Source: Kosakonia sacchari SP1 (lineage in GTDB: Bacteria > Pseudomonadota > Gammaproteobacteria > Enterobacterales > Enterobacteriaceae). From it: a DNA stretch of 64,000 nt. Within the stretch, counting starts at the first letter, position 1. Every line of letters begins with the position of its first letter. Shown piece by piece: positions 35,823-35,874 of this stretch. The stretch spans positions 1,736,001-1,800,000 of the forward strand of contig NZ_CP007215.2 in NCBI RefSeq assembly GCF_000300455.3. Direction: 5' to 3'. The notes beneath the pieces are model-generated. The model had not been told where the DNA came from and made no database searches. It was given only the letters and a program-made list of their open reading frames with translations. A program made the position numbers and the translations under genes.

Positions 35823-35874
35823 TCTGTCTGTCTGTCTGTCTGTCTGTCTGTCTGTCTGTCTGTCTGTCTGTCTG
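35823..35874 (+). repeat. (TCTG)13 tandem tetranucleotide repeat
   Basis: Thirteen perfect copies of TCTG begin 7 nt after the wzx stop and end 45 nt before the start of the next glycosyltransferase. A GTG-initiated 20-codon frame (35813-35875) runs through the tract (VKII, then repeating CLSV). All three frames are closed just after it by stops at 35873, 35877 and 35884. The reverse-complement unit CAGA is a permutation of GACA, the repeat of phase-variable lgtC in Haemophilus influenzae. Confidence 0.98.

What the first reader, a model, noticed from the sequence alone, without database searches (positions are those of the whole stretch)
35823..35874. Perfect (TCTG)13 tetranucleotide repeat between wzx and an O-antigen glycosyltransferase
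Seen directly: 52 bp of uninterrupted tetranucleotide repeat. Such tracts are hallmarks of slipped-strand phase variation in Haemophilus and Neisseria surface-glycan genes and are rare in enteric genomes. The tract lies 7 nt after the wzx stop and 45 nt before a TTG start, so copy-number change would alter spacing or mRNA structure rather than a reading frame of the transferase. Inference: a possible contingency element tuning expression of downstream O-antigen genes.
Basis: partly seen in the sequence, partly recalled or inferred. Interest (0 to 1): 0.85.

Follow-up and report, generated by a model that had tools for sequence, protein, structure and literature searches.

The report
Non-coding TCTG microsatellite in O-antigen operon
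A perfect run of thirteen TCTG repeats sits in the short gap between two O-antigen genes of an enteric bacterium; it is real and unusual, but it cannot switch a reading frame and looks more like a local, probably length-variable microsatellite than a proven gene switch.

Summary
In detail: (TCTG)13 at 35823-35874 is perfect, far beyond chance (log10 expected about -25) and the genome's only TCTG run of five or more units. It is non-coding: all three plus-strand frames close within 12 nt after it, and the downstream glycosyltransferase has its own TTG start. Six relatives keep the gene pair with 7-47-nt gaps and no tract. TCTG runs of six or more units occur in 6 of 392 family genomes, the other five beside no recognised glycan gene; upstream of an amino-acid permease, five congeners carry 16, 10, 3, 2 and 0 units, so such tracts change length between species. 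In five genomes of three other families TCTG runs lie in or at the edge of ORFs (one GT8, one DUF5672, three restriction-modification), the switch type that this tract is not. Most likely a locally expanded intergenic microsatellite with little or no effect; graded control remains possible, untested.

The parts
35823..35874 (+). (TCTG)13 perfect tetranucleotide tract, non-coding
   Evidence: only TCTG run of 5 or more units in the genome
35817..35919 (+). 103-nt gap between wzx stop and glycosyltransferase start; 51 nt without the tract
   Evidence: the gap is 47, 7, 7, 16, 15 and 16 nt in six relatives
35873..35886 (+). stop codons closing all three plus-strand frames at the end of or after the tract: TGA 35873-35875, TAG 35877-35879, TGA 35884-35886
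34300..34581 (+). wzx-like flippase, upstream piece (own frame)
   Evidence: 69% over 83 aa to residues 1-83 of an intact relative
   Evidence: PF01943; 51% over 393 aa to residues 97-489 of the same relative
35920..37191 (+). glycosyltransferase (Glycos_transf_1 type), TTG start, apparent Shine-Dalgarno AAGGG about 8 nt upstream (read by eye)
   Evidence: PF00534/PF13692; 64% to a relative that also starts at TTG
37277..38044 (+). putative wzy polymerase, upstream piece
   Evidence: weak TIGR04370 match (18.3 bits, cut-off 40); 61% over 228 aa to a 431-codon relative frame
37900..38544 (+). putative wzy polymerase, downstream piece (different frame)
   Evidence: 56% over 182 aa to residues 238-419 of the same relative protein
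29587..29598 (+). ops/JUMPstart-type element GGCGGTAGCGTG (consensus recalled) in the leader before rmlB
   Evidence: 2 exact among 10 hits at up to 2 mismatches (the other exact one is 5361-5372)
29683..41766 (+). O-antigen cluster: rmlB, rmlD, rmlA, rmlC, WecE-like aminotransferase, wzx, GT, putative wzy, 280-aa gene, two further GTs, acetyltransferase
   Evidence: rmlB and rmlA named from general Pfam matches plus position

Best explanation
The tract is an intergenic microsatellite that expanded locally, by slipped-strand replication, in the untranslated gap between wzx and a glycosyltransferase gene. It would be transcribed as (UCUG)13 but not translated, cannot switch a reading frame of a neighbour at any copy number, and leaves the downstream gene's own start signals untouched. 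Its length probably drifts, and its effect on O-antigen expression is most likely small or nil. Shown: perfection, uniqueness in the genome, non-coding position, absence from six relatives, sporadic occurrence of the same motif elsewhere in the family, and a cross-species length ladder at another site. Inferred: slippage in this strain and lack of effect.
For: All three plus-strand frames close at or after the tract's end. Six relatives (G184, G330, G389, G005, G008, G009) have an open frame upstream of the transferase ending 7-47 nt before it, five of the six with a PF01943 match (L040 has none), and no TCTG-class run in the gap; the sequence after the tract aligns with the gap of G184. The motif at six or more units is in 6 of 392 family genomes; the other five lie near an amino-acid permease (two congeners), an aldehyde dehydrogenase, a sodium:sulfate symporter and an ORF without Pfam match. 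Orthologous permease leaders carry 16, 10, 3, 2 and 0 units in five congeners. Control motif CAAT at six or more units: 2 of 392; its reverse TAAC: 1 of 392; there are 33 tetranucleotide classes, so some long tract somewhere in an enteric genome is not astonishing.
Against: Its place among surface-glycan genes is suggestive. The tract's RNA is unusually unstructured (z +2.9, 200 of 200 shuffles fold at least as well), which could matter for the mRNA. A promoter-like site (9 of 12) at 35778-35805 lies just upstream on the plus strand and, if real, would put the tract at the start of a 5' leader. Upstream tetranucleotide tracts change mRNA levels in other bacteria. TCTG (6 of 392) was commoner than the two control motifs (2 and 1 of 392), so a motif-specific cause is not excluded. 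Copy-number change in this strain was not observed.
Confidence: 0.66

Rival explanations
1. Graded (rheostat) contingency element: the number of UCUG units sets the length of an untranslated, unstructured stretch inside the O-antigen mRNA and thereby Rho/NusG-dependent polarity, mRNA decay or coupling between wzx and the transferase, so slippage makes subpopulations with different output of the distal O-antigen genes.
For: The cluster has an exact ops element upstream, the kind of leader found in operons silenced by NusG/Rho and rescued by RfaH (PMC7819879, passages). The gap is 103 nt against 7-47 nt in six relatives, the tract is 75% pyrimidine with 13 YC steps in the gap, and it folds poorly. 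Upstream tetranucleotide tracts tune uspA2 and nadA (passages).
Against: No conservation of the tract; C does not exceed G in the tract (13 of each), unlike a classical rut site (recalled); in Moraxella a GTTC tract 68 bp upstream of a permease ranged over 6-27 units between strains but the few variants measured differed only 1.2-1.43-fold; [quoted passage not shown] wzx and putative wzy are split here. Fold and composition were computed for the native length only.
Confidence: 0.2
2. Classical ON/OFF contingency locus: copy number changes the reading frame of the transferase or of wzx.
For: Same motif class (GACA/CAGA/TCTG) and unit size as Haemophilus tracts; in the order search the tract spans the start of a GT8 ORF, a DUF5672 ORF and restriction-modification ORFs of other families.
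Against: Stops in all three frames at or after the tract's end, a TGA before it ending wzx, and a TTG start after it that is conserved in a relative.
Confidence: 0.02
3. Decaying cluster: O-antigen genes are under relaxed selection in this strain, and the tract is one of several indel-type scars along with the frame breaks in wzx and wzy.
For: Both putative export and polymerisation genes are split, while the five other cluster genes compared match a relative over nearly their whole length; PMC12826051 (passages) reports that inactivating wzx in Pseudomonas selected for mutations that prevented O-antigen expression.
Against: The breaks may be homopolymer errors of the assembly: the two genes hold 21 of 87 homopolymer runs of six or more in 55 genes. 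The remaining genes are open, so decay, if real, is recent.
Confidence: 0.08
4. Assembly artefact in the tract (wrong unit number or spurious tract).
For: Only one assembly was available; reads could not be seen.
Against: Perfect tract in a single-contig genome; the same kind of tract in other genomes.
Confidence: 0.04

Closest known systems
Moraxella catarrhalis uspA2 (AGAT)n and RS00020 permease (GTTC)n upstream tracts
   Same: Tetranucleotide tract in non-coding DNA 132 and 68 bp upstream of a gene, 13-18 and 6-27 units (PMC7302503, passages)
   Different: Those are known to vary between strains; uspA2 has a measured effect (up to 3.37-fold), the permease little (1.2-1.43-fold). Here neither variation nor effect is known, and the tract lies between genes of a presumed operon
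Neisseria meningitidis nadA (TAAA)n promoter tract
   Same: Non-coding tetranucleotide tract of 4-13 units upstream of a surface gene (PMC2791445, passages)
   Different: The nadA tract spaces repressor and IHF sites upstream of a mapped promoter; none is mapped here
Haemophilus influenzae (GACA)n tracts of lgtC and pgt1
   Same: Same motif class, in LOS or putative glycosyltransferase genes (PMC2651432 passages; PMC3938747 passages)
   Different: lgtC is scored ON or OFF by repeat number (that paper's word for the tract is 'intergenic', its place in the ORF is recalled); pgt1's tract is in the gene's 3' region and may modulate function. Here the tract is outside every gene
Yersinia pestis (CAAA)n VNTR
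   Same: Tetranucleotide repeat in an enteric genome used as a strain marker (PMC3316555, one passage)
   Different: Different motif and locus
Helicobacter pylori sabA rheostat tract
   Same: Repeat number tunes expression by degree (PMC4081817, title and start of abstract only)
   Different: Homopolymer tract in a promoter region (recalled)

Membership tests
Frame-switching contingency locus (Haemophilus lic/lgtC type) | Tract lies within the ORF so that unit number changes the frame | tested here: not met
   Stops in all three plus-strand frames at or after the tract's end, start codon downstream; longest minus-strand frame across it is 35 codons
Frame-switching contingency locus (Haemophilus lic/lgtC type) | Long perfect tetranucleotide tract | tested here: met
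   13 perfect units
Upstream rheostat contingency locus (uspA2, nadA type) | Tract upstream of or within a promoter or 5' leader of the controlled gene | tested here: inconclusive
   45 nt upstream of a start, but between genes of a presumed operon; a weak promoter-like site lies just upstream (35778-35805), none on the plus strand spans the tract
Upstream rheostat contingency locus (uspA2, nadA type) | Unit number varies within the species | not testable with these tools
   No second genome with this cluster found
Upstream rheostat contingency locus (uspA2, nadA type) | Expression depends on unit number | not testable with these tools
   Needs wet-lab measurement
Upstream rheostat contingency locus (uspA2, nadA type) | Tract kept at the same place in relatives (expected, not strictly required) | tested here: not met
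   0 of 6 relatives have a TCTG-class run of two or more units in the gap (one two-unit CAGA run lies elsewhere in L011)
Intergenic bacterial microsatellite/VNTR | Perfect short-unit tract outside genes, sporadic among relatives | tested here: met
Intergenic bacterial microsatellite/VNTR | Length polymorphism | tested here: inconclusive
   Shown across species at another TCTG site (16, 10, 3, 2, 0 units), not at this one

The most novel reading that the evidence does not exclude
A slippage-tuned transcription-polarity element: an expandable UCUG stretch placed in the untranslated gap of an ops/RfaH-type O-antigen operon, where unit number would set how often Rho/NusG ends the transcript before the distal sugar-transfer genes, giving graded O-antigen heterogeneity by a route other than frame or promoter switching.
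Probability: 0.08. Interest if true: 0.75.

Novelty: new member of a known kind. Interest (0 to 1): 0.3.

Why it matters
Enteric O-antigen variation is usually explained by other mechanisms (phage-borne modification genes, epigenetic switches; recalled). A length-variable tract inside an O-antigen operon would be a simple, testable addition. As it stands its main value is as a caution, that a repeat beside a surface-glycan gene is not by itself a contingency locus, and as a lead: in this family's draw the TCTG tracts lie mostly in non-coding DNA and at one site differ in length between species, whereas in the five genomes of three other families they sit in or at the edge of ORFs.

Tried and rejected
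Frame switching into the transferase, wzx or a minus-strand gene: rejected, frames closed. Promoter-spacer model: the consensus scan gave 8 promoter-like sites against a mean of 3.7 in shuffles; one on the minus strand uses CAGACA inside the tract, none on the plus strand spans it, one on the plus strand lies just upstream at 35778-35805; not pursued further. Copies of the cluster in E. coli, plasmids and GTDB contigs: no close copy, so no within-species length comparison; the tools warn that records very near the window's genome may be left out. Naming the organism: only that its his operon is about 82% identical to E. coli. Papers: searches listed no paper on a TCTG tract in an enteric O-antigen cluster; only the listings were read, they are capped, and the library holds only open-licence papers. 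Control motifs: one control search (CAAT, with TAAC as its built-in reverse) out of 33 classes, so the statement that TCTG is commoner is weak. Many of the 392 family genomes are 0.2-1 Mb, which lowers the counts.

Full report
What is there. The window holds thirteen perfect TCTG units at 35823-35874. Under Markov models of order 1 to 3 the expected number in the genome is about 10^-25 to 10^-26. No other tetranucleotide run of three or more units is in the window, and no other TCTG run of five or more units is in the 4.9-Mb genome (nine overlapping hits, one tract). The genome is an enteric one but not E. coli: its his operon is at best about 82% identical to E. coli.

Setting. The tract is in the O-antigen cluster between galF and gnd: rmlB, rmlD, rmlA, rmlC, a WecE-like aminotransferase, wzx, a transferase, a putative wzy, a 280-aa gene, two further transferases and an acetyltransferase (galF, gnd by its plasmid matches; rmlB and rmlA from general Pfam matches plus position). 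An exact ops-type element lies before rmlB at 29587-29598. The tract follows the wzx stop by 6 nt and precedes the TTG start of the transferase by 45 nt.

Frames. In the plus strand every frame is closed at or just after the tract's end: TGA 35873-35875, TAG 35877-35879, TGA 35884-35886. wzx ends before it. The longest minus-strand open frame across it is 35 codons. So no unit number can switch a reading frame of a neighbour. The transferase start is supported by a relative (64% identity) that also begins at TTG with similar upstream sequence.

Relatives. The transferase was found in 4 of 392 family genomes (own included) and in 4 of 15 genus genomes (own included; the two sets share members), giving six different relatives. 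In each an open frame of 483-496 codons, cut at its upstream end by the fetched locus, ends 7, 7, 15, 16, 16 or 47 nt before the transferase; five of the six match PF01943 as wzx does, the sixth (L040) matches no Pfam family. No TCTG-class run of two or more units is in any of the six gaps; one two-unit CAGA run lies elsewhere in L011. The tract is therefore an insertion or expansion seen only in this genome. E. coli, plasmid and GTDB-contig collections held no close copy; the four GTDB-contig matches were 31-35% identical. Within-species variation could not be tested.

How common are such tracts. TCTG at five or more units: 1 of 38 relatives (own only). At six or more units: 6 of 392 family genomes. 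The other five carry 6, 19, 13, 10 and 16 units. By eye, the 6-unit tract is just before a Shine-Dalgarno-like sequence and ATG of an ORF without Pfam match, within that ORF's open frame; the 19-unit one follows a terminator-like hairpin near an aldehyde dehydrogenase; the 13-unit one follows a short ATG frame some 470 bases before a sodium:sulfate-symporter-like ORF; the 10- and 16-unit ones lie upstream of an amino-acid permease (cycA-like by recall) in two congeners. All five members of that genus in the draw gave 16, 10, 3, 2 and 0 units (runs of two or more) at that leader: TCTG tracts in non-coding leaders of this family change length between species. A control motif, CAAT, was in 2 of 392 and its reverse TAAC in 1 of 392. 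With 33 classes of tetranucleotide a long tract somewhere in a genome is uncommon but not extraordinary; this rests on three classes measured.

Contrast with other families. In the order-wide draw, 7 of 355 genomes had eight or more units: the window's genome, one of the permease-type genomes, and five genomes of three other families. In the one locus looked at in each of those five, the tract lies within or at the edge of an ORF: a GT8 glycosyltransferase (34 units), a DUF5672 protein (12), an MmeI-type restriction-modification gene whose two parts meet in different frames at the tract (16), and two type I restriction specificity genes (19, at a contig end, and 18). The GT8 genome has further hits not looked at. 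This is the frame-switch arrangement known from Haemophilus (PMC2651432 passages). The window's tract is of the other, non-coding kind.

Broken neighbours. wzx is in two frames: 34300-34581 matches residues 1-83, and 34509-35816 matches residues 97-489, of an intact 505-codon relative. Putative wzy is likewise in two frames (37277-38044, 37900-38544) against an intact 431-codon relative. Both overlaps contain homopolymer runs, and these two genes hold 21 of the 87 runs of six or more in 55 window genes taken from the ORF list (one run is counted in two overlapping genes), so assembly error is as possible as real loss. The five other cluster genes compared match the relative over nearly their whole length. 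If the breaks are real, O-antigen is probably not exported or polymerised in this strain, and tuning of its expression would be moot; inactivating wzx in Pseudomonas is reported to select for mutations that prevent O-antigen expression (PMC12826051 passages).

Could it act? The RNA of the gap is less structured than all 200 shuffles (z +2.9). An untranslated, unstructured, 75%-pyrimidine stretch in an ops-type operon could load Rho or expose the message, and RfaH normally protects such operons (PMC7819879 passages). A weak promoter-like site at 35778-35805 would, if real, put the tract at the start of a leader. Precedents for upstream tetranucleotide tracts run both ways: uspA2 up to 3.37-fold, a permease tract 1.2-1.43-fold (PMC7302503 passages), nadA quasi-periodic between low and high transcript (PMC2791445 passages). 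Against it, C does not exceed G in the tract, there is no conservation, and the transferase keeps its own start signals.

Verdict. A real, rare, non-coding microsatellite; frame switching excluded; a graded effect open but unproven. I judge a neutral or nearly neutral expansion most likely (0.66), a functional rheostat possible (0.2).

Noticed in passing
34509-34581 and 37900-38044: wzx and putative wzy are each split over two reading frames in this assembly, with homopolymer runs in both overlaps; intact homologues exist in relatives. Real loss or assembly error not decided.
   Followed up: partly
L043-L047 (also L024, L025), upstream of an amino-acid permease gene (cycA-like by recall): A CAGA/TCTG tract in the permease leader has 16, 10, 3, 2 and 0 units in five species of one genus: a natural length series that may affect permease expression.
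   Followed up: partly
L061 1501-1636 and L062 1501-1548: CAGA tracts of 34 and 12 units at the start of a GT8 glycosyltransferase ORF and of a DUF5672 ORF in genomes of about 2-2.6 Mb of another family: likely frame-switching contingency genes. The first genome has further hits not looked at.
   Followed up: partly
L063 1501-1564, L064 2-77 and L065 1501-1572: CAGA/TCTG tracts at the junction of the two halves of an MmeI-type restriction-modification gene, and in two type I specificity (Methylase_S) genes, suggesting phase-variable restriction-modification.
   Followed up: partly
L020 1501-1524: On the minus strand, (CAGA)6 directly before a Shine-Dalgarno-like sequence and ATG of a 272-codon open frame without Pfam match.
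   Followed up: no
5361-5372: Second exact ops-type element, upstream of what looks like the colanic-acid operon.
   Followed up: no
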